In this document: piece after piece, positions 31,071-52,441 of the stretch | How positions within the stretch are numbered: position 1 is the stretch's first letter | Layout of the letters: each line of letters starts with the position of its first letter | Origin: Acidovorax sp. SRB_14 | GTDB lineage: Bacteria > Pseudomonadota > Gammaproteobacteria > Burkholderiales > Burkholderiaceae_C | Length of the DNA: 64,000 nt | NCBI RefSeq assembly: GCF_012932145.1 | Contig: NZ_MWOK01000008.1 | Span: forward strand, 1-64,000 | Reading direction: 5' to 3' | Position numbers and translations under genes: made by a program | The notes under the pieces: generated by a model | The model's database searches: none | Told to the model about the DNA's origin: nothing | Seen by the model: only the letters and a program-made list of their open reading frames with translations

Positions 31071-31546
31071 CAGAGAATCAGAGCCCAACGCTGGACAAAG
31101 CCGCTGTCCTCCGGCACCCGACCTTCCTCGAACTCATCCTCGACGCGCAGCGCAGAAACGGTTGGACCGACGAAGAGCTGGAGCACAAGCTGGGCTTGCG
31201 CAAGGCGAACTTGATGGCGCTGGTGCGGGAAGGAGTCGTGCAGCTCTCGTACGACACTGCACTGAACATCGAGTCTCATCTCGAAGCCAACGTCCTGCAG
31301 ACGCTTCAGGCCAGCCTTCGCAGCCATGCGGCCTCCATGGAGGCAGCGGTGTTGTCGATGTACGCACTGCTGAAGGTGGACGGGGAGAGCCATCGCATCA
31401 TCCAGGCGTATGGATCAGTGCTCGATGGTGACACGCGGGTGTCTACGCTGAAGCTGACTAAGGCAACGGTGTGGATCGTGCCAGATGCGACGATGAAACC
31501 CGAGGGCGAGAACGAGGGCGAGGACGAGGACGAGGGCGGGGACTGA
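31067..31546 (+). CDS. Putative HTH protein with acidic tail (second of a pair)
   Basis: 159 residues, translationally coupled to the gene before it (ATGA overlap). The N-terminal part ([25 protein letters not shown]) looks like another Xre-type helix-turn-helix and shares the same layout as its neighbour, suggesting an old duplication. The C-terminus ends [14 protein letters not shown], written by GAGGGCGAG-type repeats, an acidic tail that might be variable in length. No function is known. Confidence 0.6.
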
Positions 31547-31723
31547 TCCACCCACCACGTCGGGATAAGGACCTTGCACCCCTTATGCCGACGTGCGTGT
31601 TGCTGTGGCCCTTGGCGCCGTTTTTCCTGGCTCGGCGAAAAACCATCCTTATAGGGCCAGAGCCACTGGGCACGTTCAGGTACTCGGCAGTCAGAGCCTG
31701 GCGTGGAATGCCGTCGATGCGCG

Positions 31724-32413
31724 CTACGACACGGGCAGCAAGATTTGATGGGTGTTGTCCACGGGGCCATGCACGAAAAGCTCTATGCCCGGCACCTGAA
31801 TCAACGCCTCGGCCTCCGCCGCGGTGGCATGCAACCAGGTGTCCCAGTCGCCTTTCTCCAGCGGCACCACGGTGCGCTTGTCCTGCAGGTGCGGCGGGCG
31901 CTTGGGGTCCGGCCGGTGCATCAGCTTGAGCAGCGGGTGGTCGTCGCAGTTCTGCGTGACCATCGTGTAGCTGGGCAGCACCTCGCCCGTGGCCGGGTCG
32001 GTCCATTCACTCCACAGGCCCGCCAGGCCCCAGGGCGCGCCATCGGCGCGCGAGAACTGCCAGGCGATGTGCCTGCCCGTGCCCCAGTACGGCTCGACGT
32101 AGCTTTGCGCCGCGATGATGCAGCGCTGCCCCTTGCGCCAGGGGCCGCCATAGGTCCAGGACCTGGCCATGCCTTCGCGCCGCGCGTTGACCGTGCTCAG
32201 GCGCTTGCCGTCCTGGCCTGTGGGGATATGCGTTGGGGAGTTCGGGGGAACCATGCCCCACTGCCCGACCACGAGCGCGCGCCCCGCGCCCTTGGCGCGC
32301 AGGAAAGGGCCGCGGTAGAGAGGGCTCATCTTGTCGCGCCACTCTCCCTCGGGCACTGCCCCGAAGTGCAGCGCCAGCTGTTCGCGGCCCGGAACGTCGT
32401 AAAAAACGCACAT
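31724..32413 (-). CDS. yedK: SOS-response-associated peptidase (SRAP/YedK/HMCES family)
   Basis: 229 residues from ATG 32413. The second residue is the catalytic cysteine (MCVFYD), required for the covalent link to abasic sites in single-stranded DNA. Other SRAP signatures are present: NARREGM, CIIAAQSYVEPYW (catalytic Glu), and VTQNCDDHPLLKLMHRP with the catalytic His. It shields abasic sites at stalled forks. It is divergent from umuD and shares the promoter region with its LexA box. The gene could also be called from a longer frame, but Cys2 fixes the start. Confidence 0.93.
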   Translation of the reverse strand: MCVFYDVPGREQLALHFGAVPEGEWRDKMSPLYRGPFLRAKGAGRALVVGQWGMVPPNSPTHIPTGQDGKRLSTVNARREGMARSWTYGGPWRKGQRCIIAAQSYVEPYWGTGRHIAWQFSRADGAPWGLAGLWSEWTDPATGEVLPSYTMVTQNCDDHPLLKLMHRPDPKRPPHLQDKRTVVPLEKGDWDTWLHATAAEAEALIQVPGIELFVHGPVDNTHQILLPVS

Positions 32414-32441
32414 GCCCTTATTCTGGCAGTTGGCGGATACA

Positions 32442-32457
32442 CTGTAAATATGTACAG
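32442..32457. promoter_or_regulatory. LexA (SOS) box between yedK-like gene and umuD
   Basis: CTGTAAATATGTACAG matches the consensus CTGT-N8-ACAG perfectly. It covers the predicted ATG of umuD (32450) and lies 29 bases before the start of the divergent SRAP gene, so LexA would likely repress both. Confidence 0.88.
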
Positions 32458-32899
32458 CCTTCTGGATTCCCCGCTGCCCGTGCCGTTCGATACGGCGGCG
32501 CCGGCGCTCGCGCTGCCGCTGTGCGGCATCACGGTGCGCGCGGGGTTTCCGTCTCCCGCCGACGACTTCGTGGTCGAGCGCCTGGACATCATGCGGCTGC
32601 TCGTCAAGCACCCCCAGGCCACGTTCTTCTGGCGCGTGCGCGGCGACTCGATGCGCGACGCGGGCATCGAGGACGGCAGCATCATCGCGGTCGACCGCGC
32701 GATCCGACCCAAACACGGCTGCATTGTGGTGGCCATGGTCGACGGCGAGTGCACCGTGAAGTACCTCTACCAGCGCGGCGGCCGCACCAAGCTGCGCGCA
32801 GCGAACCCCACCTACCCCGACATCATCCCGCGCGACAGCCAGACCATCGAGGTGTGGGGTGTGGTCAGTGGCTGCGTGAAGCTCTTTCCGACTTCCTGA
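32450..32899 (+). CDS. umuD: UmuD-type SOS mutagenesis protein
   Basis: 149 residues. The self-cleavage site is Ala31-Gly32 in VRAGFPSPADDF (Cys-Gly in E. coli), the nucleophile is Ser67 in RGDSMRD, and the general-base lysine is Lys104 in ECTVKYLY. RecA-stimulated cleavage would give UmuD', which joins UmuC as polymerase V. The ATG lies within the LexA box, so the mRNA is probably leaderless or nearly so. umuC follows 27 bases later. Confidence 0.93.
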   Translation: MYSLLDSPLPVPFDTAAPALALPLCGITVRAGFPSPADDFVVERLDIMRLLVKHPQATFFWRVRGDSMRDAGIEDGSIIAVDRAIRPKHGCIVVAMVDGECTVKYLYQRGGRTKLRAANPTYPDIIPRDSQTIEVWGVVSGCVKLFPTS

Positions 32900-32926
32900 C
32901 CCGAGAGCACCTGCGAGTGCACCGCG

Positions 32927-34225
32927 ATGTACGCCCTCATCGATGGCAACAACTTCTACGTCTCCTGTGAGCGCGTGTTCAGGCCGAGTCTCAACGGCCG
33001 TCCGGTGATCGTGCTCAGCAACAACGACGGCTGCGCGATTGCGCGCAGCAACGAAGCGAAAGCTTTGGGCATCAAGATGGGCGCGCCGTGGTACCAGTTG
33101 CGGCACCTCGAAGAGACCGAAGGGCTGGTGGCTTTGAGCGCAAATTTCACGTTGTACGGCGACCTGAGCGACCGCATGATGAGCTTGGCTGCGGGCCTCG
33201 GTCCGGTGCAGGAGGTCTACAGCATTGACGAGAGCTTCATTGGCCTGCTGGGGGTGCGCGGCGACCTGACCCAGCGCTGCCGCGACGTCCGCAGCCGCAT
33301 CCACCAATGGGTGGGCATCCCGTGCTGCGTGGGCGTTGGGCCGACCAAAACGCTCGCGAAGCTGGCCAACCACATTGCAAAAACCGCAGAGCGCAAGCCG
33401 GGCAGCTACCCGGCCGAGCTCGCGCAGGTCTGCAACCTCACGGCGCTGCCCGCGCAGGACCTCGACGACGTGCTGGCCGCCACGCAGGTGGAAGAAGTCT
33501 GGGGCGTGGGCCGCAGGATCGCGGCGCAGCTGCACGAAGGCGGTGTGCACAGCGTGCTCGACCTCCTGCGCATGGACCCGGCGACAGTGCGCAGGCGCTG
33601 GAGTGTGGTGCTCGAGCGCACGGTGCGAGAACTCCAAGGCATGCCGTGCATTGCGCTCGACGACGCGCCCGCGCCCAAGAAGGAAATTGCATGCACGAGG
33701 GCCTTCGGCCAGGCAGTCACTGCGCTGGCGCCGCTCGTGGAGGCCGTGAGCGAGTTCGCCTCCCGGGCGGCCGAGAAGCTGCGCAAGCAAGGCAGTTTGG
33801 CAAGCCAGCTGCTGGTGTTCGCGCACACCTCGCCGTTTCGGCCGGGCCCCAGGTTCAACAAGTCGGTCGTCGTGCCGCTGCGCCGCCCCACGGCCGATAC
33901 CGGCACCCTGGTATCGGCTGCTGCCCTCGGCATGCGGCGCATCTATGAGCCCGGCTACCCGATGGCCAAGGCCGGGGTGATGCTGCTGGACCTGATACCG
34001 GCGGACGTGCTGCAGCGCGAGCTCGACCTCGAGGGCGACAACCTGCGCGACCGCACCAAGCTGATGGTGGCGCTCGACGCGCTCAACGGAAGGTATGGCA
34101 AGGGCACTGTGCACTCGGCGAGCACCGGGGCGACCAACAAGGACAAGCATTGGGGGATGAAGCAGGAGCGGCGCACGCCTCAGTACACGACGCGCTGGGA
34201 GGATGTGCCGATAGCGAGAGCCTGA
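32927..34225 (+). CDS. umuC: UmuC-type Y-family DNA polymerase
   Basis: 432 residues with the Y-family core: [18 protein letters not shown] (first catalytic acidic residue), [10 protein letters not shown] (catalytic SIDE-type motif), [35 protein letters not shown] (HhH thumb), and the C-terminal beta-clamp region. Together with the UmuD upstream it would make translesion polymerase V. The C-terminal extension ([15 protein letters not shown] ... [10 protein letters not shown]) is typical of UmuC. Confidence 0.95.
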
Positions 34226-34436
34226 TAGCTAGACAAAGGTCCATGTATTCAACCAATACTTGCACAAGGTACATATGCCATGAAGCAGAGATCGGCCAGA
34301 AGCGAAAAAGTTGACATACGTCTGGCAAGCGACTGGTATGCAGGGCGTATTCGACCGGTTGATGCACCACATTCGCTGGACATCTCAGTGGGCCTATGAA
34401 CTGCCGATAGACTGGACGCATAGGAGGGGAAAAAAG

Positions 34437-37415
34437 ATGACCAAACCCGAGGTGGATTTAATTCGCGGATCGTTGTGGCACCGCTGGGATCCGCACATTC
34501 ATGCGCCGGGCACGGCGATGAATGACCAGTTTTCGGGGCACTACCCCTGGCAGGAGTTTTTCACCCGGGTCAACCAGCAAGAACCACCGATCCGGGCGCT
34601 CGGCATCACGGACTACTTCCTCGTGGACACGTATGAGAAGGCATGCCAAGCGAAATCGACTGGCAGCCTACCGGGCGTGGAGTTACTATTTCCCAACATC
34701 GAGATCCGCCTATCCATCGGCACCGCAAGCAGCTCGGCGATCAACGCGCACCTCCTTTTCTCGCCTGACGACAGCGATCACCTGGACCGGATACGGCGGC
34801 TGATGGCCAGCTTCAAGTTTCGCTACCTGCGCGATGAATACCGATGCGAGCGGTCCGAGCTTATCCGGCTCGGCCGCGCGCATGACGCATCCATAGTCGA
34901 TGAGGGAGCCGCCCTGACTACGGGCGTGAACCAGTTCAAGATCGACTTCGAGGAGCTGCGCGAGACATGGGAGACGAACGACTGGTTCAGGAACAACTGC
35001 CTGATCGCCGTCGCCGTGGGGGAACGCGATGGAACGTCGGGGCTGCGCGATGAGTCTTCGTCATTTGCCGCGCTGCGGACCAATATAGAGGGGTTCGCGC
35101 ACATCATCTTCAGCGCTAACCCCAAGCAGGCAGCGTTTTACCTCGGAAAGGGCGTCGTGCCCCTGGAGGAATTGAATGCTAAGTGGGGCGGCGTTAAGCC
35201 CTGCCTGCACGGCTCTGATGCGCATGCGCACGCCAAAATCGGCAAGCCTGCTCTGGACCGGTTTTGCTGGCTCAAGGGCGCGCTGAGCTTCGAGACGCTG
35301 CGCCAAGCCTGCATGAACCCAGAGGGGCGCGCGTTCATCGGTAAGGAGCCACCGCGCGGAGCGTTGCCCAGTAACGCCATCCGGTCAGTGTCTGTGAGCA
35401 ACGCGCCTTGGATGGCGCCCGCCTCGATCCAGCTCAATCCGGGTCTCGTCGCGATCATCGGCGCTCGTGGATCCGGCAAGACAGCTCTCGCGGACTTCAT
35501 CGCCATGGGCGGCTGTGCCGCCTCCAGGCATTTGAGCGACAAGTCCTTCCTGCGTCGGGCCGCCGATCACCTGAAGGAGTCGGAAGCCCAGTTGCGCTGG
35601 GAGTCGGGCGAGGACACTTCCAACGCGTACTCCGCCGTGGACGACGAAGACCTCATCGACGCGCCGCACGTCCAGTACCTGTCTCAGCAGTTTGTGGACC
35701 AGTTGTGCTCGGCAGAAGGGCTGGAAGACCCGCTGGTGCGAGAGATCGAACGCGTGGTCTTCGACGCGCACCCCGACATGGATCGTCTGGATGCCACGTC
35801 GTACGAAGAGCTGCTGGACATCCGACTGGAGGGCGCGCGCACCAGCCGGTGCAGAAACGTGGACGCGATCTCTAGACTTTCCGAGACGATGACGCTAGAG
35901 CAGGCGAGGAAAGATGGGCTTCCTGCGTTGACCAGGGATCTCGGCGAGAAGAACAAGGCGATCCTGAACGACGAGACAAACATGAGGGCGTTGATGCCTA
36001 AGGGCAATGAGATCCGTGCCAAGCGCCACGATACGGTGTCTGAAGCCGTGGATGCAAAGCGCGCTCAGGTGCTCAAGGCGAAAGTCAGGCTGGAGGCCCT
36101 GCAGCACCTGACAGCGGACATCAAGAACATGCGCGAGCAGGTACTGCCGAATATGATCGACGACTTGAGACAGGATCGGGAGGATGCCGCATTGCCCAAC
36201 GCGGATTGGGATCAATTCCGACTCGTCTTTGCCGGAGACGTTGACGCGGTCCTGACCCAGCGCCTGCTGGAGACCCGGCGCACGCTACTCAGTCTGGAGG
36301 GGGAGCCAGCAACGCCTGCGCTAGATGTCGAGGCCGATCCCAATATGGCGTTGGTGGCCGAAGGCGACGACTTGTCAAAGTATCCTTTGGCCCTGCTCGA
36401 GCAGGAGTTGGCCAGGCTGCGCAAACTGGTGGGAATGGACGCCCAGAACGAAAGGCGCTTCAAGCTCATTGCCGACCGAGTTTCAAAGGCCAAGATCGCC
36501 GCGGCTAAGGTCGACGCGGAGATCGTGAAAGGCAAAGGTGCGACAGAACGCCTCGAAGCGCTGCGGCAGCAGCGCCGCGCCGCCTACGTGGGGGTGTTCC
36601 AGGCGGTGCTTGATGAGGAAAAGGCGCTGGCTGAACTCTATGAGCCGCTCAAGGCGCAGATTGCAGTTGCCCAAGGCTCGTTGGCGAAACTGACTTTCAC
36701 CGTCCGGCGAGATGTCGATCTGGCGGCTTGGTGCGATAGGGGTGAATCGCTACTGGACCTGCGCTCCTCAGGGGCCTTCAAGGGCAAAGGCAGCCTGCGG
36801 AACATCGCGGAACTCACCTTGCACGAAGCCTGGCGCAGCGGCGACGCGGCGCGTGCCGGTGAGGCGCTCCTGCAGTTCATAAGCGCGCATTCTGGCGATC
36901 TGCGCGTGCAGCGCCCCGAACACATGGAACTCAAGACATGGGCGCGGCAAGTGTCGGTTTGGCTGTTCAGTACTGATCACATTTCTGTGAGCTACGGTTT
37001 GGAATTCGACGGTGTTCCCATCGAGCGACTATCGCCTGGTACCCGGGGAATCGTGCTGTTGCTCTTGTACCTCGCGGTCGACTCGCAAGATGATCGACCA
37101 CTGATCGTCGACCAGCCGGAAGAGAACTTGGATCCACAGTCGATTTACGACGAACTCGTCGTCGAGTTCCAGCGCGCAAAGCTACGCCGGCAAGTGATAA
37201 TCGTCACCCACAACGCAAATCTTGTCGTCAACACCGACGCCGATCAGGTCATTGTGGCCCACTGTGGCAACCATGAACCAGGTCGCCTTCCACGAATGAG
37301 CTACGTGTCCGGGGGGCTAGAAGAGCCTGCGATTCGAGAATCGGTGTGCGCGATCTTGGAGGGGGGAAGGAGAGCGTTCCAGGAGCGTGCAAAGCGTCTG
37401 CGCGTCTCTATGTGA
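34437..37415 (+). CDS. PHP-domain / SMC-like ATPase (TrlF family)
   Basis: 992 residues from ATG 34437, which follows AGGAGGGG; an in-frame start 126 bases upstream lacks this. The N-terminal PHP domain shows RWDPHIHAPGT (H20, H22), GITDYFLVDTY and HGSDAHAHAK metal ligands. An ABC/SMC-like ATPase follows: Walker A IIGARGSGKTALAD near residue 345, a long coiled-coil (about 500-800), the signature LSPGTRGIVLLLLYLA, Walker B PLIVDQPEENLDP, and H-loop VIIVTHNANLVV. This combination suggests a nuclease or phosphoesterase gated by an SMC-like motor, probably in DNA defence or repair, but the family's role is not established here. Confidence 0.82.
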   Translation: MTKPEVDLIRGSLWHRWDPHIHAPGTAMNDQFSGHYPWQEFFTRVNQQEPPIRALGITDYFLVDTYEKACQAKSTGSLPGVELLFPNIEIRLSIGTASSSAINAHLLFSPDDSDHLDRIRRLMASFKFRYLRDEYRCERSELIRLGRAHDASIVDEGAALTTGVNQFKIDFEELRETWETNDWFRNNCLIAVAVGERDGTSGLRDESSSFAALRTNIEGFAHIIFSANPKQAAFYLGKGVVPLEELNAKWGGVKPCLHGSDAHAHAKIGKPALDRFCWLKGALSFETLRQACMNPEGRAFIGKEPPRGALPSNAIRSVSVSNAPWMAPASIQLNPGLVAIIGARGSGKTALADFIAMGGCAASRHLSDKSFLRRAADHLKESEAQLRWESGEDTSNAYSAVDDEDLIDAPHVQYLSQQFVDQLCSAEGLEDPLVREIERVVFDAHPDMDRLDATSYEELLDIRLEGARTSRCRNVDAISRLSETMTLEQARKDGLPALTRDLGEKNKAILNDETNMRALMPKGNEIRAKRHDTVSEAVDAKRAQVLKAKVRLEALQHLTADIKNMREQVLPNMIDDLRQDREDAALPNADWDQFRLVFAGDVDAVLTQRLLETRRTLLSLEGEPATPALDVEADPNMALVAEGDDLSKYPLALLEQELARLRKLVGMDAQNERRFKLIADRVSKAKIAAAKVDAEIVKGKGATERLEALRQQRRAAYVGVFQAVLDEEKALAELYEPLKAQIAVAQGSLAKLTFTVRRDVDLAAWCDRGESLLDLRSSGAFKGKGSLRNIAELTLHEAWRSGDAARAGEALLQFISAHSGDLRVQRPEHMELKTWARQVSVWLFSTDHISVSYGLEFDGVPIERLSPGTRGIVLLLLYLAVDSQDDRPLIVDQPEENLDPQSIYDELVVEFQRAKLRRQVIIVTHNANLVVNTDADQVIVAHCGNHEPGRLPRMSYVSGGLEEPAIRESVCAILEGGRRAFQERAKRLRVSM

Positions 37416-37439
37416 AGCAATACGCACCGATCGAATTCG

Positions 37440-37796
37440 GTGTGGAACTCCAGTCAGTACTTTCCGCTGGTTTTGGAGACTCTGCGGCTCATCCGGCAGA
37501 GCATTGAGCTCGTTGACGAGAAGCGTGCCAAGCGGTTTTTTGCCGATGACCAAGGGGGAGATGTGTTTGTGATCACGGGACCGGTGTTCACAGACGCAGG
37601 TCCTCGCATCGGATCCAATGCGGCAACGGGGCCAACATATCTGTACAAGCTGGTCTATGCCGCTATGGCCCAGAGGGCATGGGTGCGTCTGCAGGAGAAC
37701 CAGGATGGAGAGAAGGTAAGCCGGCTGATCAGCTACCGTGAACTGGTGAGGGGGACGAGCGTAGAGTTCCTGCCGATGTTGCCCTCCAAGCTCTGA
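37440..37796 (+). pseudogene. C-terminal fragment of a DNA/RNA non-specific endonuclease (NUC1)
   Basis: About 118 residues. GDVFVITGPVFTDAGPRIG, then TGPTYLYKLVYA, then NQDGEKVSRLISYRELVRGT and EFLP are the end of a NUC1 fold (V-x-V-T-G-P-x-F; P-T-x-L-Y-K). The N-terminal half with the catalytic DRGH motif is missing, so it is a remnant. It begins 24 bases after the TrlF-family gene, which suggests the cut joint of an old insertion or deletion. Confidence 0.75.
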
Positions 37797-38228
37797 GCGC
37801 CGTGTCCGTTGTTCCAGAGCGCAAATGTAAGCACGCCTTAGTGGACCGGAAATTTCTAGAGCGTCATTGACCAAGATCTCAAATGGGTCTTGGCAGCTCG
37901 AATTGAACTACCGCAATAGGCTGAATTCGGGGTGTCGTGGTTGACGCGCAGATGTCGGCGCCGACAACCAGCAGTCACTTGGCGATCGGTGCTGCGAAGG
38001 ATAACAGTACTACCAAATCCAGACACCTCTAATGCTCATCGGGCCGGTAGGCGGAATGACCGCACATCTAGGTGAACGGGAAGTTGCGACCAAAGGGGCT
38101 CCTGCGGCAGCCAACCCGCGTCGGCTGAAAAATAAAGCGGTAGCCCCCCGAGAGCTGACGAGAGCCTTGGAATCGTGTTCGTTCCAATTGAGTGAGCAGG
38201 GCGCATGGAGGAACGACTGGGGTGTTCA
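37797..38228. other. Intergenic region, no gene supported
   Basis: No open frame with a ribosome site or recognisable motif was found on either strand in these 432 bases. The 101-codon frame at 38032-38337 overlaps the end of the muramidase gene on the other strand and looks like chance. Confidence 0.4.
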
Positions 38229-39095
38229 TTACTTCCCTGACAGCACCCCAAGGTCCTTGCCCTTGAGCTTGTTAACGTCGAACTTCACGCCCGCTCCACC
38301 GATGGCGCCCACATCGGTGAACTGCCAAACCAGGTAGTCGTGCTGCATGACTTTCAGTGGCGCGCCGTTTTTGAAGTTCAGCTGGCGATAGTCTGCGATC
38401 CAATGCGGATAGTCCTTAAGCAGCAGGCTGCCCGCCATCCTCTCGTTCCACCACGAGGCCGCGGTATAGATCATCGGACGTCGGCCCGTCGCTCCCTCCA
38501 CTGTGTCGAGCCAAGCTTTCACCACCCGAACAATCTCGTCCACAGGAAGCTTGGACCAGCGATCCACTTTGGCGTCGCCCACCTTCTCAAAATCCCATTC
38601 TAGGTCCAGCACGGGAGTGAGGTCATTGCCTGCAAACCCGCCAGACTTAGTGACGAGCGCGAGATAATTTTTTGCCTGCTCCGCCCCATCCGCCCCTGCG
38701 GTGAGGAAGTGATAGGCCCCCCTAATAATGCCCGCGTCTGCCGACGCACGCCAGTTGGCTTCAAATTTCGGGTCACGGAAGTTGGCGCCTTGGCTGGCTT
38801 TTATATAAACAAATTTCACACCCGAAACTGCGAAATTTGTCCATGGTACCTGCCCGTTGTGATGGGAAACATCTACGCCGTAAACGCCGTCATTCGCGTG
38901 CTCGGGAAAGACGAATTCCCTAACTACTTCTTTATTCCCGGGGTCCGTATATTGAAGTAGCTCGTACCTTGCCAGCTGCGACCGCGAAAGGTCATCGACA
39001 AGGTCAACCCAGGTGGGTTCAGCACTCGGCTGTGCCCAAGCAAAAGTAGCGAGAAGCACGATAGCGGCTACCGCGATTACTTTCTTCTTCCGCAT
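38229..39095 (-). CDS. Secreted GH25 muramidase (lysozyme)
   Basis: 288 residues with a signal peptide (MRKKKVIAVAAIVLLATFAWA, cut near residue 21). The GH25 barrel follows: VYGVDVSHHNGQV (D75), GVKFVYIKASQGANFRD, GIIRGAYHFL and PVLDLEWD, which gives the acidic pair D164 and E166. It would cut peptidoglycan glycan strands in the periplasm. Fourth and last gene of a tight operon; it starts 21 bases after the caspase-like gene. GH25 enzymes are usual in phage lysis and in cell-wall turnover. Confidence 0.9.
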   Translation of the reverse strand: MRKKKVIAVAAIVLLATFAWAQPSAEPTWVDLVDDLSRSQLARYELLQYTDPGNKEVVREFVFPEHANDGVYGVDVSHHNGQVPWTNFAVSGVKFVYIKASQGANFRDPKFEANWRASADAGIIRGAYHFLTAGADGAEQAKNYLALVTKSGGFAGNDLTPVLDLEWDFEKVGDAKVDRWSKLPVDEIVRVVKAWLDTVEGATGRRPMIYTAASWWNERMAGSLLLKDYPHWIADYRQLNFKNGAPLKVMQHDYLVWQFTDVGAIGGAGVKFDVNKLKGKDLGVLSGK

Positions 39096-39116
39096 ATTAT
39101 GTTTCCTCCATAGTGA

Positions 39117-40916
39117 CTATTGAGGGCTTTCTTTCTTACCAATCCATACTTCGATCAACCGTGCCCCGTTCAGCTTGGTGTGATACCCAGGCACGAAGCG
39201 AGCCTTAACCTTCCGGTTCAATATCTCCTGAATCGCACGCGCCACCTCGGCGGCATCGTCAGCTTCGCTTTTCGAGAAGTATCGGATCTCAGTCTCATTG
39301 GGAGACTTCTCAATCACCTCAATTCCCTTAGCAACTTTCGCGTTAGGCAACTGCTGAGCCAAATTCACGCCAAGTGCTGAAGCCTTCCCCACCTGCTCTC
39401 TCGTGGCCGCCTGCACATAGATCGTGGGCCCCGCCAGGGTCGACATGGCGCCGTCGCACACTAGGATCGTCATGTAGTCGGAGGCAGAGCCTGGCTTTTC
39501 TTCGATGCGAACCTGCGGAACGAGGTTTGACTGCAAACTCGTTGCCCAGGCCTTTTGAGCGGGGCTATCCCGGTTAAAGGTCAGCACAGAATCACGCGCC
39601 TTGTAGAGCGCCTGGTTCACGGCGGGCGGAACTGGAATGAGTCGGACTTCGCCCACCTCGAAGCCGCCCACGGGGGAGTTGGTTCCAGTGAGACGGATTA
39701 GGTGCTCGCGAATTCCTTCGGACTTCACGCGCCGCTGATCGGTGGCAGCATCACCGGCGCAATAGAGAATATCGAATCGTACTTTACGCGTCGGCGGCGG
39801 TACGGCAGCTGTGGCCGCAGACGCAGCCGGCGTTAACGTGTGGGTGAGATCAGGTGGCGCCGCGGCCTGCGCAAACACCGTGTTTTTCGCAGATACGCGC
39901 CAGAGATTTGGTGCCGCGCTTGTGCTAGCAAGCTTGACAAAACTTGTTAGGATTTTTTGCCGTGTTATTGGGCCGAATTCCTCGTAATAGGTCTTCCAAT
40001 CCTCTTCGAGGGTCGGGCATCCTCTAATGCAGAATCTCGGTGGACGAAAGATAATCCCGGCTCGCCCGGTCAACTGGCGTCGACGGCTATCGACGATGAC
40101 TCCTTTTCCGATGGCGCTTATAAGATGATCAAGTTCATCTGGCTGGGCGGTTGTTTGAGCTCGGATAACGCTAGCCATGACGCGCGCGTATCGCGTAATT
40201 CCGCCAGGAGCGCCGTCCGGAGAAGGCTCCCCAGCGACGGTCGAAAAATTATAGAGAATGTTGTATGGCTCCGATGCTTTGGCAGGGTACCGGATCAAAT
40301 CGAGACCTGCATCGCGTAATTTGTCCAGTATCGGGTTTGTTCTGCATGCATCGATAAACACAGCGACGGCCTTGTTCCAGAGCGGCTCGATTTGTCGCAT
40401 CGTTCTGTCCAGCGGCACGGCAGAGCCGCCAAATAGTATTGCGTTCGGATTTTCTTTATAGGTGTCGAACTCAACCTTTACATTGACATTGGCGTCGACG
40501 CCAAAGAGGTAATTTGTGCCCGCCACCTCGGCCCCATGGCCAGAAAAGTAGATGATGCCGAACGCACGCGGTTCGCGACGAACCTTATTATTAAATTTCG
40601 TTATCCTGTTCTCAAGTTGATCCGTGGTCAAGTTGCACACGGTGTCAACGCTCCAGTTGGCTGCCGTCAAGGCATCGGCTACCACTTTCGTATCGCTCTT
40701 CTCGCTCTTGTCGTCAGAGCACGGCGAACCCAAAGTGGGAAGATTCCCGTATTCGCCGTAGTCTGCGTTGCCAATGACTAGCGCGAACCTCGTGGGCTCA
40801 AGCATTTTTGTCAGCGATTGCTGCCCGTGCGCAGGACCATAGGCAGATGCGGCACCGAGCGCAAATGCGAACAGCGGCCATGTGCTGTGCCGTATTGTCT
40901 TAATTGATGGAGTCAT
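39117..40916 (-). CDS. Secreted caspase-like (C14/metacaspase-type) protease with unknown C-terminal domains
   Basis: 599 residues from ATG 40916, which follows TTTAGGAGGAATT; a longer frame exists but hides the signal sequence. The N-terminus is a signal peptide (TWPLFAFALGAASAYGPAHG). The caspase core runs from FALVIGNADYGEYGNLP to about residue 290, with the catalytic His127 in YFSGHGAE and Cys191 in FIDACRTNP both present. The second half (residues 400-599) holds a repeat-like domain ending EVWIGKK, with FDILYCAGDAATDQ and IYVQAATREQVGKASAL strands, similar in style to domains that follow periplasmic caspases. Export of a caspase to the envelope is notable. It starts 17 bases after the lipoprotein gene. 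Confidence 0.85.
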   Translation of the reverse strand: MTPSIKTIRHSTWPLFAFALGAASAYGPAHGQQSLTKMLEPTRFALVIGNADYGEYGNLPTLGSPCSDDKSEKSDTKVVADALTAANWSVDTVCNLTTDQLENRITKFNNKVRREPRAFGIIYFSGHGAEVAGTNYLFGVDANVNVKVEFDTYKENPNAILFGGSAVPLDRTMRQIEPLWNKAVAVFIDACRTNPILDKLRDAGLDLIRYPAKASEPYNILYNFSTVAGEPSPDGAPGGITRYARVMASVIRAQTTAQPDELDHLISAIGKGVIVDSRRRQLTGRAGIIFRPPRFCIRGCPTLEEDWKTYYEEFGPITRQKILTSFVKLASTSAAPNLWRVSAKNTVFAQAAAPPDLTHTLTPAASAATAAVPPPTRKVRFDILYCAGDAATDQRRVKSEGIREHLIRLTGTNSPVGGFEVGEVRLIPVPPAVNQALYKARDSVLTFNRDSPAQKAWATSLQSNLVPQVRIEEKPGSASDYMTILVCDGAMSTLAGPTIYVQAATREQVGKASALGVNLAQQLPNAKVAKGIEVIEKSPNETEIRYFSKSEADDAAEVARAIQEILNRKVKARFVPGYHTKLNGARLIEVWIGKKESPQ

Positions 40917-40933
40917 AATTCCTCCTAAATGCG

Positions 40934-41275
40934 TTAGTCTTCCATGACCTCCAAATCGTTGTATTTGCTCTTGGCCTCGTTCTCGAGCCTCTTTAGCTTT
41001 TCGTTGAACTGCTTTAGTTGACCTGTGCAGAATTGATAGGACTTGAGCAACGTGAAATAGGCATTGCGACATTCCACGAAATCCTGACGTGTGCGCAGAG
41101 CTACGTCTGGTAGGTCACCGTAGGTTACTTGCGGCGCAAGCGTAGCCGTTGCGACGCACGCGTTCTTCAACTCGGGTGAAGTGCACTCTGGCACAGCCGC
41201 AGGCCTGATGAGCACGTTCTTACATCCAACGCAAGCAAGCGCCACGACAAAGGTCCCGAGGCGAATTACATTCAT
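40934..41275 (-). CDS. Small lipoprotein resembling Rz1/LysC o-spanins
   Basis: 113 residues from ATG 41275. MNVIRLGTFVVALACVGC is a short signal sequence with a lipobox-like LAC or VGC (Cys15 or Cys18). The mature part has the o-spanin layout: a proline/cysteine-rich start (RPAAVPECTSPEL), a VTYGDLPDVAL stretch, and a Cys-containing helix (FVECRNAYFTLL) as in LysC of P2-like phages. The match is by eye and the protein is longer than a typical Rz1. Its ATG overlaps the upstream stop (ATGA), the usual Rz/Rz1 coupling. Confidence 0.6.
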   Translation of the reverse strand: MNVIRLGTFVVALACVGCKNVLIRPAAVPECTSPELKNACVATATLAPQVTYGDLPDVALRTRQDFVECRNAYFTLLKSYQFCTGQLKQFNEKLKRLENEAKSKYNDLEVMED

Positions 41276-41793
41276 GGTATGCCCATCGAATAGGATGTCT
41301 TGAGCTTTATCAATTGCGCGTCCGCGATAGACGTCACAGTACACAACTGCTGTAACTTGTTCTGATCGCTCATGATCGACAGCGCCTCCATGACCTTGGC
41401 CTCGCGCTCCGGACTCCCGACGGGAAGCTTTCCGATAGTTGTTGCAAGCGACGCGGTCGAATTTTTAATAGAAACGCCGCCGCGTTTCAACGCGGCCGTA
41501 GCCTCAGCCAGCCCCGTGCGCGCCTGGCCGAAATCCGTGCGGACTTTGTCAATTTCGCGCTCATATGCCTCGATCAGCGCCTGATTCTTTTCCTTGATCG
41601 ACTCATCGATAGCCGCCTTCAGGTCCGTGACGCGCTGGCCTAGTGATTGGTACTCAGCTAGTTGAGCCTGCAGCTTGTCTACTTCGCCCTGCTTTACCTT
41701 CATGCCAAAGTAAAATCCAAACCCGCCGATGATGACAATTACAATGACACCGGGCGCGACTTTGAGCAGTAGTTGACCGAGGGAAAATGGCAT
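41272..41793 (-). CDS. Single-pass membrane coiled-coil protein resembling an Rz-type i-spanin
   Basis: 173 residues. One transmembrane segment near the N-terminus (about 12-30: APGVIVIVIIGGFGFYFG) is followed by a long helical coiled coil (residues 33-100, KLQAQLAEYQSLGQRV, IDESIKEKNQALIEAYE). This is the topology of phage inner-membrane spanins, slightly longer than usual. It is the first gene of the four-gene operon and overlaps the lipoprotein gene by four bases. No function is known here; the lysis reading depends on the neighbours. Confidence 0.65.
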   Translation of the reverse strand: MPFSLGQLLLKVAPGVIVIVIIGGFGFYFGMKVKQGEVDKLQAQLAEYQSLGQRVTDLKAAIDESIKEKNQALIEAYEREIDKVRTDFGQARTGLAEATAALKRGGVSIKNSTASLATTIGKLPVGSPEREAKVMEALSIMSDQNKLQQLCTVTSIADAQLIKLKTSYSMGIP

Positions 41794-41804
41794 TGCTGAT
41801 TTCT

Positions 41805-41821
41805 CGAGTATTCAGTACTCG
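41805..41821. promoter_or_regulatory. Inverted repeat just upstream of the spanin-like operon
   Basis: CGAGTA, five bases, TACTCG. It sits 12-28 bases upstream of the first ATG of the operon, where it could be an operator or a leader hairpin. Confidence 0.4.
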
Positions 41822-42021
41822 CGAACCTCCATGGCGCTGAGAATAAGTGGATTCTTGGCATCGCGCAAGTTTTAAAGGACTCAGTAATTCTCGTGTTGGA
41901 CGGCGTATAGCTTGCTAAGGCTATCGCTAGGGGCCACTGACATTGAGAGCGGCTACCCCGCCCCGTTTGAGGCCAATAGCCGACAGCAAACGAAAGCGCG
42001 ATCGTACGTTCACTTTATGGC

Positions 42022-42991
42022 CTAGATGTCGCATCCCGGCCGATCATATGGCCGCTTGTGGAATAGCTGCGGGTGCTCCTGGTGCCAGCCCTTCATGGCC
42101 TGCATAGGCGTCTTGCTGCCCAGCGCTGACTGCGGCAACTGGTGGTTGTACAATGCCACATAGCGCAGCAAGGTCTGCTCCATGTCGTCTCGGCTGTTGA
42201 ACCCGTGGGTCTTGAGCACATCCGCTATGCGGCCGTTGAATCTCTCCACCATGCCGTTGGTTCTCGGGGTCCTGGGCTTGGTAAGTCGGTGCTCTATGCC
42301 CAGCGCCTGGCACAGCTGGTCGAACTCATGGTTGCCACTGGGCTCACGCTCCCTGCTGGCAAACAGGCGATCCGTGAACTCCTTGCCGTTGTCGGTCAGC
42401 AGCTTGTCGATCCTGATCGGACAGGCCTTGTGCAGGGCCTACAGAAACGCCTGTGCACTGGCGGCTTTCTTGTTGGCATTGAATTGCACGAACACCCAAC
42501 GCGTGACCCTCAATGGCCACGAACAGGAAGCGCCGTTGCGATTCGTCCTGCATCTGTGGCAGGCACTTCACGTCCATGTGCAGGTAGCCTGGCTCGTAGC
42601 CCTTGAACGCCTTGTGAGGCTCGCTGGGCGTCTTGGGTTTGAGGGCGTTCAAGTTGCCCACGCCATGGCGGCGCAGGCACCTGTCCAGGCCCGAGCGCGA
42701 GACATGGGGACAAATGAACTCTCGCGTGACCGCCAGCAGGTCATCCAGGGGCAGCAGCAAGGTGCGCCGCAGGTGGACCACCACTGTCTCTTGTGCCGGT
42801 GTGAGCACCGTCTGCAGGCGGTGCGCCGTGTGCGAGCGGTCCCAAAAGATAGAGCGCTTCTTCCACTTGTAGACCGTCTATTCCGTGATCCCAAAGCGCT
42901 GGGCTAGGGCACTGGCTGTCTCGTCGCTGGCTGCTATCTCGGCACGCACGGCGGGGGTGGTGCGTGCGTTCTTGTGCAGGGCAATCAACAT
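42022..42991 (-). pseudogene. Decayed IS481-family transposase
   Basis: The pieces read, from the start, MLIALHKNARTTPAVR, then a stop (TAG) after FGITE, VYKWKKRSIFWD, HMDVKCLPQMQDESQRRFLF (first catalytic Asp), a frameshift near 42500, IRIDKLLTDNGKEFTDRLF (second Asp) and TPRTNGMVERFNGRI (catalytic Glu) up to RPYDRPGCDI. At least one nonsense codon and one frameshift break it, so it is inactive. The element's terminal inverted repeats were not identified. It separates the lysis-like operon from the orphan ATPase gene. Confidence 0.85.
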
Positions 42992-43150
42992 GGCTTGGCT
43001 TCCCGGGTGGATTGCAAGGACTCTATCAACTCCCTTAGCACGGCTCTGGCCATGAAGAGTGGATAGCGGTTGGATCGATGCAATCGTCTGAGATGCGACA
43101 GCTAGGCAGCACGCCGGGATGCGTGACGAGTTCCCATTTTCTAGCTTTCT

Positions 43151-43188
43151 CTATGCATGTATATCTCAAACGTAATATACTTGCATAG
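43151..43188. promoter_or_regulatory. Large inverted repeat (probable operator) before the orphan ATPase
   Basis: CTATGCATGTATAT (43151-43164) and ATATACTTGCATAG (43175-43188) are inverted copies with one mismatch, separated by ten bases. The repeat ends 32 bases before the ATG and may overlap a promoter. Confidence 0.65.
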
Positions 43189-43220
43189 CAATTCATAGAG
43201 TTCACGCTACAGGAGATCCC

Positions 43221-44405
43221 ATGGACGCCGTGAGAAACCCATTTGCCCCGGGCGCCGGGAGTAGGCCGCCAGAGCTTGCCGGACGGGAAACCATCCTTCA
43301 GGACGCGCAGACAGCAATTCAAAGGGCGCTGTTAGGTAAGTCCAGCCGCTCACAGATGCTGCTTGGGCTGCGTGGCGTAGGAAAGACGGTGCTACTGAAC
43401 AAAATCGAAGAGATGGCCGAAGCCGCGGGGCACGTGACATCCTCGATCGAAGCGCCAGAGGGAAAGGCGCTCAGTGAGTTGCTCGTGCCAAAGATCAATC
43501 AAGCCTTGCGCAAACTCTCGATTTCGGAGAACGCGAAGGCCAAAGTCCATCAGGCTCTTCGGGCACTTCGCTCTTTCGCCTCTGCGTTCAAGCTCTCGTA
43601 CGGAGATACTTCAATTTCGGTTGATCCGGAAATAGGCGTCGCTGATAGCGGAGATATGGAGGCAGACCTACCCGAATTGTTCGTACGCGTAGGCGAAGCT
43701 GCAAAGGCAGCCGGTAAGGCCTGGACGCTTCTCATTGACGAAGTTCAGTACCTGCGCTCTGAGGATCTGGCAGCTCTGATAGTCGCTCTCCACAAGGTTA
43801 ACCAGAGAGACCTACCAGTTTTGTTCTTCGGTGCGGGGCTGCCACAGGTTGCGGCTCTTTCGGGCGATGCGAAATCCTACGCTGAACGGCTCTTTCACTA
43901 CCCTGCGGTTGGTGCGCTTGTGGAGGCGGATGCGGAGACCGCAATTAGGCAGCCAATCGAGGGTGAAGGTGAGCAAATTGACGACACCGCAATCAGAGAG
44001 ATTCTGGCAAAGACCAAAGGCTATCCCTACTTTCTGCAGGAGTGGGGCTATCAGTGCTGGAACATCGCCGAGGGGCCGCGCATCAAGCTAGAGGATGCAT
44101 CGAAGGCTGCAGGAGAGGCGACAAAACGGCTGGACGAAGGCTTCTTCAAGGTACGATTTGATCGCTTAACGCCTAAGGAGCGAGAGTACGTTATCGCGAT
44201 GGCCAAACTTGGTGCCGGGCCGTATAGATCATCGGACGTCGCAGACGCACTTAAAGAAACCCATCAAAGCCTGGGCCCGCGGCGCGCGCAGATCATCAGC
44301 AAGGGAATGATCTACAGCCCATCTCACGGCGACATTGCGTTCACCGTTCCCATGTTCAACGAGTACCTAATCCGCAACTACGTGGAGAAACCGAGCAAAG
44401 CGTAG
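43221..44405 (+). CDS. ATP-binding protein of the AAA/STAND type
   Basis: 394 residues; ATG follows AGGAGATCCC. Walker A LLGLRGVGKTVLLNKI near residue 48-62, Walker B TLLIDEVQYL near residue 172, and a sensor-like VLFFGAGLPQVAAL follow the ATPase fold. A winged-helix-like tail (RLTPKEREYVIAMAKLGAGPYRSSDVADAL) comes next. Similar orphan ATPases are found in islands of many bacteria and are named only ATP-binding protein. A palindrome upstream suggests strong repression. Defence role possible, not shown. Confidence 0.7.
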   Translation: MDAVRNPFAPGAGSRPPELAGRETILQDAQTAIQRALLGKSSRSQMLLGLRGVGKTVLLNKIEEMAEAAGHVTSSIEAPEGKALSELLVPKINQALRKLSISENAKAKVHQALRALRSFASAFKLSYGDTSISVDPEIGVADSGDMEADLPELFVRVGEAAKAAGKAWTLLIDEVQYLRSEDLAALIVALHKVNQRDLPVLFFGAGLPQVAALSGDAKSYAERLFHYPAVGALVEADAETAIRQPIEGEGEQIDDTAIREILAKTKGYPYFLQEWGYQCWNIAEGPRIKLEDASKAAGEATKRLDEGFFKVRFDRLTPKEREYVIAMAKLGAGPYRSSDVADALKETHQSLGPRRAQIISKGMIYSPSHGDIAFTVPMFNEYLIRNYVEKPSKA

Positions 44406-44613
44406 CTGCGCGGAGGACGAGTGAGCGGTGTCTGTGTGCTGCCTGCGACAGGCTAGGCCGTATTTCGTGCTGATATTGGGCGACCGCAGCGTCCGCGCGT
44501 TCCGAACGGATGGCCATGGTGTAGGCGCCCGAGTCAATTTCGTCGCCTAGGCGGCGAATGACGGTGGCCAGCGCGCGGATGGACCTGTGGAAGTGGGGAG
44601 GCTTAAATTTCAT
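44356..44613 (-). CDS. Small hypothetical protein (doubtful)
   Basis: An 85-codon frame starting MKFKPPHFHRSIRALATVI with a region (IRRLGDEIDSGAYTM) that reads like protein rather than chance, but no ribosome site is clear and its end overlaps the ATPase gene on the other strand by 50 bases. Kept as a weak candidate for the gap between 44406 and 44715. Confidence 0.25.
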   Translation of the reverse strand: MKFKPPHFHRSIRALATVIRRLGDEIDSGAYTMAIRSERADAAVAQYQHEIRPSLSQAAHRHRSLVLRAATLCSVSPRSCGLGTR

Positions 44614-44715
44614 AGATATCGGATGTAGTGAAAGGGGAAGCACGGGCCTGGCCCATGCAAATGGGTATAGAGCCTCTGTTTATCCAATTTCCTAGGCACA
44701 AACCCTTCTCCGCCT

Positions 44716-45990
44716 TCACAACACCATTAGCTCTTCGTCATCAGGCCGCCGCACCGTGAAGACCGCCTCGGCACCACCGGCGTCACGGAAAACCGCCGAC
44801 GTTTGGATGCCTGGGCCAGGGGTCGCCAGCGACAACGCTTTGTCGCCAACCCGCAGGGGGTAGTAGAGGTGCCCACGCTGAAACAGATACTGCCCAGTCA
44901 CATCCCCCAGCGAACCGTGCGTCGACATCAGCTGCAAAGCCGTCGGCCGGTTCACGACCTTGCCGCTTAGCTGCATCACCGCCAGCTTCACCCCTCGCTG
45001 CATGTAGCGGCTGGTCAGCGCGACAGGCAGGTAGTACGAGATGACCGACCCCGACTTTTCCCGCGCCACCGACGATTGAGTGAAGAACACCGCGCCGACC
45101 ACGCAGCCAGGCTGCTGAAGCAGTTCGCTGGCCAAGCTTCGCAAGGCATCCACATCGGCGGTGGCGTGCACGCGCATGAAGATGACATTGCTGTATAGCT
45201 CCGACAGCGGCGAGTGAAGCGCGAAGGCGTCGATGGCCTTGAGCAGCTTGTTCCTGAAATTCGCCTGTTCATTGGCGTGCGCCGGCGACCGAACCACCAA
45301 CTGATAGGAAGGTGGCTGTATGCCTGGGAACATCAGCGGCGAGAACTGGATGGCTGTCTCGCTGCCCGGCAGACGGTATTGCCGCCCGGATCCCATCAGC
45401 GGCATGACCTGCATCTGCTCGACCAGCGCTTGCAGCGTCCGCTTGCCCATGTGCGTGAGCGACCCGGCAGTCAGGCTCCATGAGCCGCCCGAGCTTGCCA
45501 CGCGCGCACGCGCAACAGCATCAAGGACTTGACAGCCCTCCCGAAAGGCAGCCTCGTGGCTGGACAAGTCGTGGTTCTTGATGGAAGCGCGCAACATGTG
45601 ACCGTCCGGCAGGGTGATTTGCGCGTCATAGCCGGCCGTGCGCGCCGGCATTGGCCTCACCTTGGAGCCCCCAGCTGCCAGCCCGCCCAGCATCATGATC
45701 TCGAAGAGGTGGCCGTGACCGCCGGCGGGCTGATTGCGCGCCGCGCGTGCGGTGTCCTTCAGCCACTTGCCGTGCTTGGCCAGCGCCTCGATGGCATGGC
45801 CCAGCGACGCCAGCTCGAGTTGGGCGAGTTCATCCTTTCGGTGCCATAGCTTTTGCAGACGGTGCTGCTGCGCCGACTCCAGCCACTGCACGCTGAACAA
45901 CTCGCCCGCGACGCGCCGGAAGTGCTCCTTCTCCTCCTTCGTGGTCGGCATAGGCGGGAGATCGTAGGCCTCAGTGGCTATGTCGGTCAT
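44716..45990 (-). CDS. Uncharacterised protein, possible PD-(D/E)XK nuclease fold, divergent from CBASS
   Basis: 424 residues. No family is recognised. The stretch from residue 90 to 140 (HLFEIMMLGGLAAGG, then AGYDAQITLPDG, then LRASIKNHD) has a glutamate, an aspartate at a strand end and an x-x-K strand in the order used by PD-(D/E)XK nucleases. The rest is mixed alpha/beta without signal peptide or membrane segment. It is divergent from the CBASS operon over a 227-base spacer, so it may share regulation with it. Could be a separate defence gene. Confidence 0.5.
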   Translation of the reverse strand: MTDIATEAYDLPPMPTTKEEKEHFRRVAGELFSVQWLESAQQHRLQKLWHRKDELAQLELASLGHAIEALAKHGKWLKDTARAARNQPAGGHGHLFEIMMLGGLAAGGSKVRPMPARTAGYDAQITLPDGHMLRASIKNHDLSSHEAAFREGCQVLDAVARARVASSGGSWSLTAGSLTHMGKRTLQALVEQMQVMPLMGSGRQYRLPGSETAIQFSPLMFPGIQPPSYQLVVRSPAHANEQANFRNKLLKAIDAFALHSPLSELYSNVIFMRVHATADVDALRSLASELLQQPGCVVGAVFFTQSSVAREKSGSVISYYLPVALTSRYMQRGVKLAVMQLSGKVVNRPTALQLMSTHGSLGDVTGQYLFQRGHLYYPLRVGDKALSLATPGPGIQTSAVFRDAGGAEAVFTVRRPDDEELMVL

Positions 45991-46070
45991 GGGCTATGGG
46001 GCGCTACGGGCGCAATCTATCCCGCTTTTTCATCGCTGGAAATTTTGTGGCGCAACACTAGCAGTAGTGG

Positions 46071-46099
46071 TTGAAAAACCGAATGACCACACATATAGC
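46071..46099 (+). promoter_or_regulatory. Probable promoter of the CBASS operon
   Basis: TTGAAA (46071-46076), a 17-base spacer and TATAGC (46094-46099). Predicted start of transcription is near 46106, 37 bases before the ATG at 46143 and 112 before the ATG at 46218. Confidence 0.5.
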
Positions 46100-46217
46100 G
46101 TGCTTTTCCGTAAAATGTAACGGATTGCGATTCATCTGCACCATGCACCCACTACTCGGCCTTGGACTGTTCGCGGGAGCCCTGGTCTGGCTATTTTCTG
46201 AAGACAAGGAATACACG

Positions 46218-47231
46218 ATGCCAGCAGTACAGAAGCAGTTTGAAGGCTTCCACAGCGCCATCAAGCTCGACGAAGATGACGAGAACGCTAAGCTCCGCAT
46301 GAAGCGCGACACCCTGATCAAGGCGCTCAAGGCCAAGATGGGCGACGACGTGCCCACGTTCGAGTACTTCAACCAGGGCAGCTACTCCATGTTCACCGGT
46401 GTCGTGCCCGTGGACGGCAACTACGACATCGACGTCGGTCTGGTCTTCGACTGCAAGCAAGACAAGTACCCCGACCCGGTGGTGCTGAAGCAGAAGGTGC
46501 GCGACGCGCTGAACTCGAACTTCCGCACCGTGGCCATCCGCCGCCCCTGCGTGACGGTGAACTATCTGGTGAACGGCATGGCCGACTATCACGTCGACCT
46601 GGCCATCTACGTCAAGCGCGACGACGACATGCTGGACCTGGCGAAGGGCAAGGAAGGCTCGGCTTCCGAGTTCCGGGTCTGGCAGGTCTCCGACCCCAAG
46701 AAGCTGACGGAACTCATTCGCACCGCCTTCACCGACGCTGACGAGCTCGCGCAGTACCGCCGCTGTATCCGCTACCTGAAGCGCTGGCGCCACGTCCAGT
46801 TCCGCAACGGCGGCGCGCCGCTGAGCATCGCCCTGACCGTCGCTGCACGCGAGTGGTTCAAACCCAACTTCAGCACCGCGGGCAAGCCGCTGGACTTGCT
46901 GGCCATGCTCGACTGGACCAACGCGATGCTCTCCCGCTCCGAGACCGACTTCACGATGGAGGACGGCCTTTATTCGCGGCTCAAGGTGCAGTTGCCCGTC
47001 ACGCCCTATGGCGATCTGATGGGGCACATGACCAAAGGCCAGATGGAGAACTTCTGGGAGCGCCTGCAGGCCCTGCGCGACGCCCTGGAGGCAGCGGAGA
47101 GCGAGGACCTGCCGGAGGACGCCTGCAAGATCCTGAACAAGCAGTTCGGCGACGACTTCAAGGTGCCCGAGAAGGCTGAGACCGCGAAGGCCGTTACGGC
47201 TCCGGTCATCAACACCGGTAGCTCCGCTTGA
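46218..47231 (+). CDS. CBASS CD-NTase (Cap1), cyclic oligonucleotide synthase
   Basis: 337 residues from ATG 46218 (AAGGA seven bases upstream). The nucleotidyltransferase core has NQGSYSMFTG (GS at 54-55), the catalytic pair D70 and D72 in YDIDVGLVF, and the third aspartate D127 in YHVDLAI. It would make a cyclic di- or trinucleotide on phage infection. An in-frame start at 46143 would add a hydrophobic segment (LLGLGLFAGALVWLF). The C-terminus ends in small residues (INTGSSA), compatible with Cap2 conjugation. First gene of a type II CBASS operon. Confidence 0.93.
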   Translation: MPAVQKQFEGFHSAIKLDEDDENAKLRMKRDTLIKALKAKMGDDVPTFEYFNQGSYSMFTGVVPVDGNYDIDVGLVFDCKQDKYPDPVVLKQKVRDALNSNFRTVAIRRPCVTVNYLVNGMADYHVDLAIYVKRDDDMLDLAKGKEGSASEFRVWQVSDPKKLTELIRTAFTDADELAQYRRCIRYLKRWRHVQFRNGGAPLSIALTVAAREWFKPNFSTAGKPLDLLAMLDWTNAMLSRSETDFTMEDGLYSRLKVQLPVTPYGDLMGHMTKGQMENFWERLQALRDALEAAESEDLPEDACKILNKQFGDDFKVPEKAETAKAVTAPVINTGSSA

Positions 47232-52402: not shown

Positions 52403-52441
52403 CTGCGCGTAGAAGGCATGTCGAAGGTCTTACATCCGACA

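What the first reader, a model, noticed from the sequence alone, without database searches (positions are those of the whole stretch)
38229..41793. Envelope-targeted caspase with a spanin-like pair and a GH25 muramidase in one operon
Four minus-strand genes are packed with a 4-base overlap and gaps of 17 and 21 bases: membrane coiled-coil protein, lipoprotein, secreted caspase-like protease with intact His127 and Cys191, and secreted GH25 muramidase. Seen in sequence: each product carries a signal peptide, lipobox or membrane anchor. The first two resemble i- and o-spanins, and with the muramidase they make a phage-type lysis set without a holin. Established: spanins disrupt the outer membrane and GH25 cuts peptidoglycan; caspase-like proteases serve as death effectors in bacterial defence. 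Inference: this may be a protease-gated self-lysis or envelope defence system. A holin-free lysis set would rely on Sec export of the muramidase. I know of no described system with this exact composition.
Basis: partly seen in the sequence, partly recalled or inferred. Interest (0 to 1): 0.9.

Follow-up and report, generated by a model that had tools for sequence, protein, structure and literature searches.

The report
Caspase–muramidase pair of the envelope
A bacterial gene cluster on a mobile island pairs an exported caspase-like protease with an exported cell-wall-cutting enzyme, and relatives across Proteobacteria keep this pair together, usually with a caspase fused to a second such enzyme domain, which suggests a little-known way of putting a cell-wall cutter under protease control.

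Summary
The four genes exist as described. The exact four-gene set was found nowhere else, but its core recurs. The window GH25 muramidase belongs to a distinct subfamily whose N-terminal leader carries one invariant arginine ([DE]-x-[S/T/A]-R). In an unbiased genome scan 23 of 25 full-length members (27 of 29 with four plasmid loci picked by hand) have a caspase-like gene nearby. In 25 of these 27 it is an intact caspase–GH25 fusion right behind the GH25 gene. Control GH25 loci: 0 of 20 bacterial, 0 of 9 viral. The window and Caballeronia sordidicola have the split form (separate caspase and GH25, plus a lipoprotein-like protein). The operon sits on a 34-kb tRNA-Thr-integrated island with type I restriction genes and CBASS. 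The spanin reading of the two small proteins is weak: no close relatives, low HMM scores, coiled-coil background. Best explanation: an envelope-located, protease-controlled muramidase; self-lysis or defence is possible but unshown. Caspase–amidase fusions are in print (PMC3501461); eight searches of the held papers listed no description of a caspase–GH25 pair. Verdict: real, new variant of a known kind.

The parts
38229..39095 (-). Secreted GH25 muramidase with a leader (about residues 25-70, invariant R38) of the caspase-associated subfamily
   Evidence: PF01183 E 2.8e-42; subfamily clade 99/96; R38/D75/D164/E166; model mean pLDDT 84.9
39117..40916 (-). Secreted caspase-like protease (His127, Cys191 in D-A-C-R) with a ~300-aa C-terminal part of unknown fold; its last ~100 aa resemble the C-terminus of an ATPase-type protein in another genome
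   Evidence: PF00656 E 2.6e-13; conservation; C-terminal similarity to L049, E 1.2e-4
40934..41275 (-). Small exported, probably lipidated Cys-containing protein, weakly Rz1/LysC-like (o-spanin candidate)
   Evidence: PF23793 LysC E 0.037, below cut-off; only LysC match reported in the window's genome at E 10 or less, E 0.093; 0 of 8 shuffled/reversed controls hit LysC
41272..41793 (-). Single-TM coiled-coil protein, weakly Rz-like (i-spanin candidate)
   Evidence: phrog_739 Rz-like spanin E 2.5e-4 plus three weaker Rz families; best phrog_739 hit of the genome (3.8e-4), with other proteins at 0.0023 and 0.012
18561..52640 (.). Integrated genomic island that carries the operon: 50-bp exact repeat of the tRNA-Thr 3' end at 18561-18610 and 52591-52640, integrase 51125-52402

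Best explanation
The core of the operon is an envelope-located protease–muramidase module: a caspase-like protease and a GH25 muramidase are both exported and act together. The most likely way is that the protease acts on the GH25 leader, at or near its invariant arginine, to release or activate the enzyme when a signal reaches the periplasm. The consequence would be local cell-wall opening or lysis. Shown: gene content, export signals (by eye), catalytic residues, recurrence of the pair, caspase–GH25 fusions in relatives, mobile-island setting. Inferred: that the partners act on each other, the direction of control, the cut site, and any lytic outcome. The two small proteins may help breach the outer membrane; this is the weakest step.
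For: Unbiased scan of genome contigs with the GH25 alignment: 26 loci, 25 full length plus one fragment (L129, dropped). A caspase-like gene is nearby in 23 of 25, or 27 of 29 with the four plasmid loci picked by hand; the exceptions are L108 and L114. Controls: 0 of 20 bacterial GH25 loci and 0 of 9 viral, confirmed with a second profile. Fisher p 8e-12 for 27/29 against 0/20 (loci are not independent). In 25 of 29 loci the partner is an intact fusion. The profile was built from these fusions, so I retested: a profile from the 8 fusions with independent caspase support (Pfam; caspase profile) finds the other 17 of 17 at E 7e-44 or better, and the stand-alone GH25 profile finds GH25 in 23 of 25, the last two by a fusion profile. 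GHG and active-site Cys motifs are in 25 of 25. The window and all 29 form one clade (99/96); window and Caballeronia L105, both with separate caspases, branch outside the other 28. R38 is kept in 29 of 29 and is a gap in 28 of 28 controls. Prokaryotic orthocaspases cut after basic residues (PMC6426788, passages). In L108, which lacks the caspase, the next genes are a metzincin-like protein (sub-threshold Pfam, HExxH motif) and a trypsin-like protease.
Against: R38 is kept in the two loci without a caspase (L108, L114), and in the model it starts a moderately confident helix, which fits a structural or docking role as well as a cut site. The fused caspases mostly have N-A-C or G-S-C rather than D-A-C at the active site, so one specificity for all is doubtful. 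Pfam's caspase model missed two of five fusions scanned, L069 and L104. The subfamily is very patchy: only the window genome among 399 sampled from its order. The caspase model was too poor to use (mean pLDDT 40.3).
Confidence: 0.5

Rival explanations
1. The operon is a self-lysis or abortive defence cassette: the caspase gates the muramidase, and the two small proteins act as spanins to break the outer membrane.
For: Island with type I restriction and CBASS genes; weak Rz/Rz1 hits in the right order with a 4-base overlap; shuffled or reversed controls give no Rz hit.
Against: No spanin-like pair was recognised beside the relatives (by eye, part of that listing was cut); Escherichia copies sit at the same place in four genomes with the same neighbours; the tested fusions and Escherichia GH25 match no PADLOC model at E 0.001 and no NCBIfam model above its cut-off; phrog_739 rings in all 14 control genomes.
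Confidence: 0.25
2. Cell-wall remodelling without death: the fused GH25-like domain is a wall-binding anchor, the caspase trims envelope proteins, and the stand-alone GH25 opens the wall locally.
For: In 14 of 25 fusions at least one GH25 catalytic acid is changed or not aligned (depends on the alignment), so that domain may bind rather than cut.
Against: The stand-alone GH25 keeps all three acids in 29 of 29.
Confidence: 0.2
3. Antibacterial effector with immunity: the muramidase is used against neighbours, the lipoprotein or membrane protein protects the producer, and the caspase processes the effector.
For: Probable lipoproteins beside the pair in the window, L105 and some rhizobial loci.
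Against: The lipoproteins show no evident likeness; the window neighbours scanned include no secretion-system gene, though other loci were not searched for these; signal peptides point to the producer's own periplasm.
Confidence: 0.13
4. Remnant of a phage lysis cassette with a caspase gene inserted by chance.
For: Endolysin and weak Rz-like PHROG hits; three Lactobacillus phage records align from residue 29 at 27.8%.
Against: The GH25 groups with 29 leader-bearing relatives and apart from 19 control GH25s; 9 viral relatives lack leader and caspase; the best-ranked phage hit is 31.7% over residues 51-276.
Confidence: 0.05

Closest known systems
Prokaryotic caspase homologs fused to an N-acetylmuramoyl-L-alanine amidase (Amidase_2), four sequences including Polaromonas naphthalenivorans (PMC3501461, passages read)
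   Same: Caspase-like protease joined to a peptidoglycan hydrolase; the authors also suggested a cell-death role.
   Different: Amidase, not GH25. 'glyco' and 'muramidase' have no occurrence in its main text, 'lysozyme' none. No two-gene pair with a leader-type muramidase in the passages seen.
Phage lysis cassette (holin, endolysin, Rz/Rz1 spanins; recalled)
   Same: Muramidase plus a TM coiled-coil protein and a small lipoprotein-like protein in overlap.
   Different: No further gene in the operon that could be the holin; exported GH25 of a cellular subfamily; a protease in the operon; spanin assignment weak.
Orthocaspases/metacaspases, peptidase family C14
   Same: Caspase family by Pfam, His/Cys dyad.
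   Different: Exported, linked to a muramidase, with a C-terminal part not in Pfam.
Bacterial gasdermin–protease operons (recalled, not tested)
   Same: A protease in an operon with a possible death effector.
   Different: The effector would be a wall hydrolase in the periplasm, not a membrane pore from the cytosol.

Membership tests
GH25 muramidase | PF01183 domain with catalytic acids | tested here: met
   E 2.8e-42; D75, D164, E166; solved relative 1jfx E 6.9e-24
Caspase-associated GH25 subfamily (defined here) | Leader with invariant Arg and one clade apart from the control GH25s | tested here: met
   (99/96)
Peptidase C14 (caspase-like) | PF00656 with His/Cys dyad | tested here: met
   E 2.6e-13; H127, C191
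Peptidase C14 (caspase-like) | Cleavage after a basic residue (metacaspase/orthocaspase type) | not testable with these tools
   D189 of D-A-C-R fits by analogy (recalled); best solved hit MALT1 E 0.0018; specificity not measured
Rz/Rz1 spanin pair | Significant match to spanin families | tested here: inconclusive
   phrog_739 E 2.5e-4; PF23793 E 0.037 below its cut-off; controls
Rz/Rz1 spanin pair | o-spanin with canonical lipobox | tested here: inconclusive
   CVGC; position -3 is not L/V/I (by eye)
Phage lysis cassette | Holin gene in the cassette | tested here: not met
   no further gene in the operon; holins elsewhere in the genome not searched
Known anti-phage defence system | Match to PADLOC models of a system | tested here: not met
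   window caspase hits only the general 'caspase' model weakly, E 0.0037, and GH25 and small exported protein none; L105 caspase hits it at 3.6e-8; two fusions and one GH25 none
Caspase–amidase fusions of PMC3501461 | Amidase_2 domain | tested here: not met
   no amidase hit in the four proteins

The most novel reading that the evidence does not exclude
A caspase-triggered cell-wall death system: a periplasmic caspase cuts the leader of a dormant exported muramidase after its invariant arginine, and in the window version a captured spanin pair finishes the outer membrane, giving a holin-free, protease-gated lysis module that travels on mobile islands.
Probability: 0.2. Interest if true: 0.88.

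Novelty: new variant of a known kind. Interest (0 to 1): 0.62.

Why it matters
Few substrates are known for exported bacterial caspase-like proteases (recalled, not surveyed). A family in which the protease is fused to, or encoded next to, a muramidase names a testable substrate and places caspase action in the periplasm. If control is confirmed, it would be a wall-targeting counterpart to protease-gated pore systems and a new model for regulated lysis.

Tried and rejected
Close relatives of the window caspase by peptide pattern: none in genome contigs or viral contigs; membrane protein and GH25 as single queries in viral contigs: none. Caspase neighbours in the order: the caspase query matches 58 of 399 genomes, the window's own included, but phmmer with the window GH25 found none in 20 fetched regions, 18 of them around caspase-domain hits and 2 around C-terminal hits. 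So the caspase is not the marker of this system; the GH25 is.

C-terminal half of the caspase: hits in L060 (a transporter-like protein) and L062 look like chance; L049, an ATPase-type protein, looks real over the last ~100 residues. Not followed further.

Spanin homologues: phage and plasmid tblastn found nothing credible; a genome search with the membrane protein gave 7 weak matches besides the window in 274 genomes (best E 7.2e-4), probably coiled-coil background. Caspase structure: the model was too poor for a fold search, so none was run. Empty site: relatives keep the tRNA-His flank, but the tRNA-Thr flank was not in the four stretches fetched; the island's ends rest on the 50-bp repeat and the integrase. 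Escherichia GH25 in the complete E. coli collection: no DNA match. Papers: searches (listings and abstract starts); two papers were read in passages.
Full report
Observation. The caspase domain (PF00656, E 2.6e-13) and the GH25 domain (PF01183, E 2.8e-42) are secure; His127 and Cys191 are nearly invariant among relatives, and the GH25 catalytic acids are present. The small exported protein has a non-canonical lipobox (by eye).

Setting. A 50-bp exact repeat of the tRNA-Thr 3' end lies at 18561-18610 and 52591-52640, with a tyrosine integrase (51125-52402) just inside. The element of about 34 kb carries type I restriction-modification genes, an AAA/SMC-type protein at 34311-37412 with a Ppl hit in PADLOC (E 2.8e-30), and a CBASS set of cyclase, E1-E2, JAB and SAVED effector. 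G+C is 54.6% in the operon, 60.1% in the island and 66.8% in the flanks. The host is probably a Comamonadaceae member: the best plasmid match of flank DNA, over 39% of the query, is 81.5% identical to such a bacterium.

Recurrence. The best matches of the window caspase in its order are about 30% identical, and in 20 fetched regions no relative of the window GH25 was found. Searching by the GH25 changed the picture. The best plasmid hits, in rhizobia, lay directly before a gene annotated as GH25 that also has a caspase-like part. An alignment of the window GH25 with four of these was run against genome contigs: 26 loci, 25 of them full length, from Alpha-, Beta- and Gammaproteobacteria and one Bdellovibrio bin; the fragment L129 was dropped. 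With two caspase profiles built here, 23 of these 25 have a caspase-like gene, 27 of 29 with the four plasmid loci. The plasmid loci were picked by hand from the best hits; a fifth plasmid GH25 hit that I fetched, L073, lacks the leader and has no caspase. Of the two misses, L108 has a metzincin-like gene (HExxH motif, Pfam below cut-off) and a trypsin-like gene instead. L114 has no caspase hit; its other genes were not annotated. Controls: 20 GH25 loci without the leader, chosen by hand, have no caspase hit, nor do 9 viral ones. Some loci are near copies (four Escherichia, two Mesorhizobium), so the p-value of 8e-12 overstates the number of independent events.

Checking the fusions. The main fusion profile was built from the fusions themselves, so retested it. 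A profile from 8 fusions with independent caspase support finds the other 17 of 17 at E 7e-44 or better, and none in 30 control loci. Pfam's caspase model was met in 3 of 5 fusions scanned (L068, L071, L112) and missed in L069 and L104. The GH25 part is found by the stand-alone GH25 profile in 23 of 25, and in the last two (L110, L122) by a fusion profile.

Two forms. In 25 of 29 loci the partner is an intact fusion, overlapping the GH25 gene by 4 bases or starting within about 25 bases where the start is clear; L070 has it split into two overlapping frames; L105 has a separate caspase. All 25 fusions keep a GHG and an active-site Cys motif. In 9 of 25 the fused GH25 keeps all three catalytic acids, in 2 more one position is a gap, and in 14 at least one acid is changed or not aligned. 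So an intact muramidase is often paired with a caspase that carries a possibly inactive GH25-like domain. The window and Caballeronia sordidicola L105 have separate caspase and GH25 plus a lipoprotein-like protein, and their GH25s branch outside the other 28 members (the window branch is long). The two lipoprotein-like proteins show no evident likeness.

Leader. Before the catalytic domain the subfamily has a leader whose only invariant residue before position 61 is R38, in [DE]-x-[S/T/A]-R. It is kept in 29 of 29, and that column is a gap in 28 of 28 controls. Orthocaspases cut after basic residues (PMC6426788, passages), so this is a natural candidate cut site. Against this, R38 is kept where no caspase is seen, and the model puts it at the start of a helix, in blocks of mean pLDDT 76-79, so a structural or docking role is equally open.

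Spanins. The membrane protein hits four Rz-like PHROGs (E 2.5e-4 to 0.094), with unrelated families from 0.0038. The small protein hits the Rz1-like LysC family at E 0.037, below cut-off, with unrelated families close behind. Shuffled or reversed versions hit no Rz family (0 of 7; 0 of 8), though one shuffle reached 0.016 with another family. In the window's genome each is the best hit to its family, but other proteins come close for phrog_739, which rings in all 14 control genomes; LysC rings in 6 of 14. I treat the pair as spanin candidates, not spanins.

Reading. The recurring unit is an exported caspase–muramidase pair. Fusion and tight gene order argue that the two act together. I take protease control of the muramidase as most likely (0.5), with lysis or defence as a possible purpose (0.25). 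Caspase–amidase fusions are already in print (PMC3501461, passages), so this is a new variant of a known kind. Eight paper searches gave no listing that describes a caspase–GH25 pair; most subscription papers and all bioRxiv preprints are outside that library.

Noticed in passing
window 46071-50536: CBASS operon: DncV-like cyclase, E1-E2 fusion, JAB protease, SAVED endonuclease-type effector.
   Followed up: partly
window 18561-18610 and 52591-52640: 50-bp exact direct repeat of the tRNA-Thr 3' end bounding a 34-kb island with an integrase at its right end.
   Followed up: partly
window 42044-42808: Frameshifted transposase-like remnant (by eye; no Pfam hit for the one ORF tested) just upstream of the operon.
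   Followed up: no
window 37440-37796: Fragment with a sub-threshold match to the later part of the DNA/RNA non-specific endonuclease profile, convergent with the operon.
   Followed up: no
L069 11373-13412, L113 5665-7755, L119 5604-7610, L120 4448-6790: These rhizobial loci carry a further caspase gene on the other strand beside the GH25 / caspase–GH25 pair; L068 has a caspase with EAD1 nearby and L071 a CHAT-TPR gene.
   Followed up: no
L112, L115, L116, L117: Four Escherichia genomes hold the pair between the same two genes (537 aa exported protein upstream, 343 aa membrane protein downstream); the L112 GH25 DNA has no match in the complete E. coli collection.
   Followed up: partly
L108 8957-10848: In Mesorhizobium kowhaii a metzincin-like gene and a trypsin-like gene stand where the caspase would be, next to the same type of GH25.
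   Followed up: partly
L049 6143-8308, last ~100 aa: An ATPase-type protein shares the C-terminal region of the window caspase (RYF ... PG motif).
   Followed up: no
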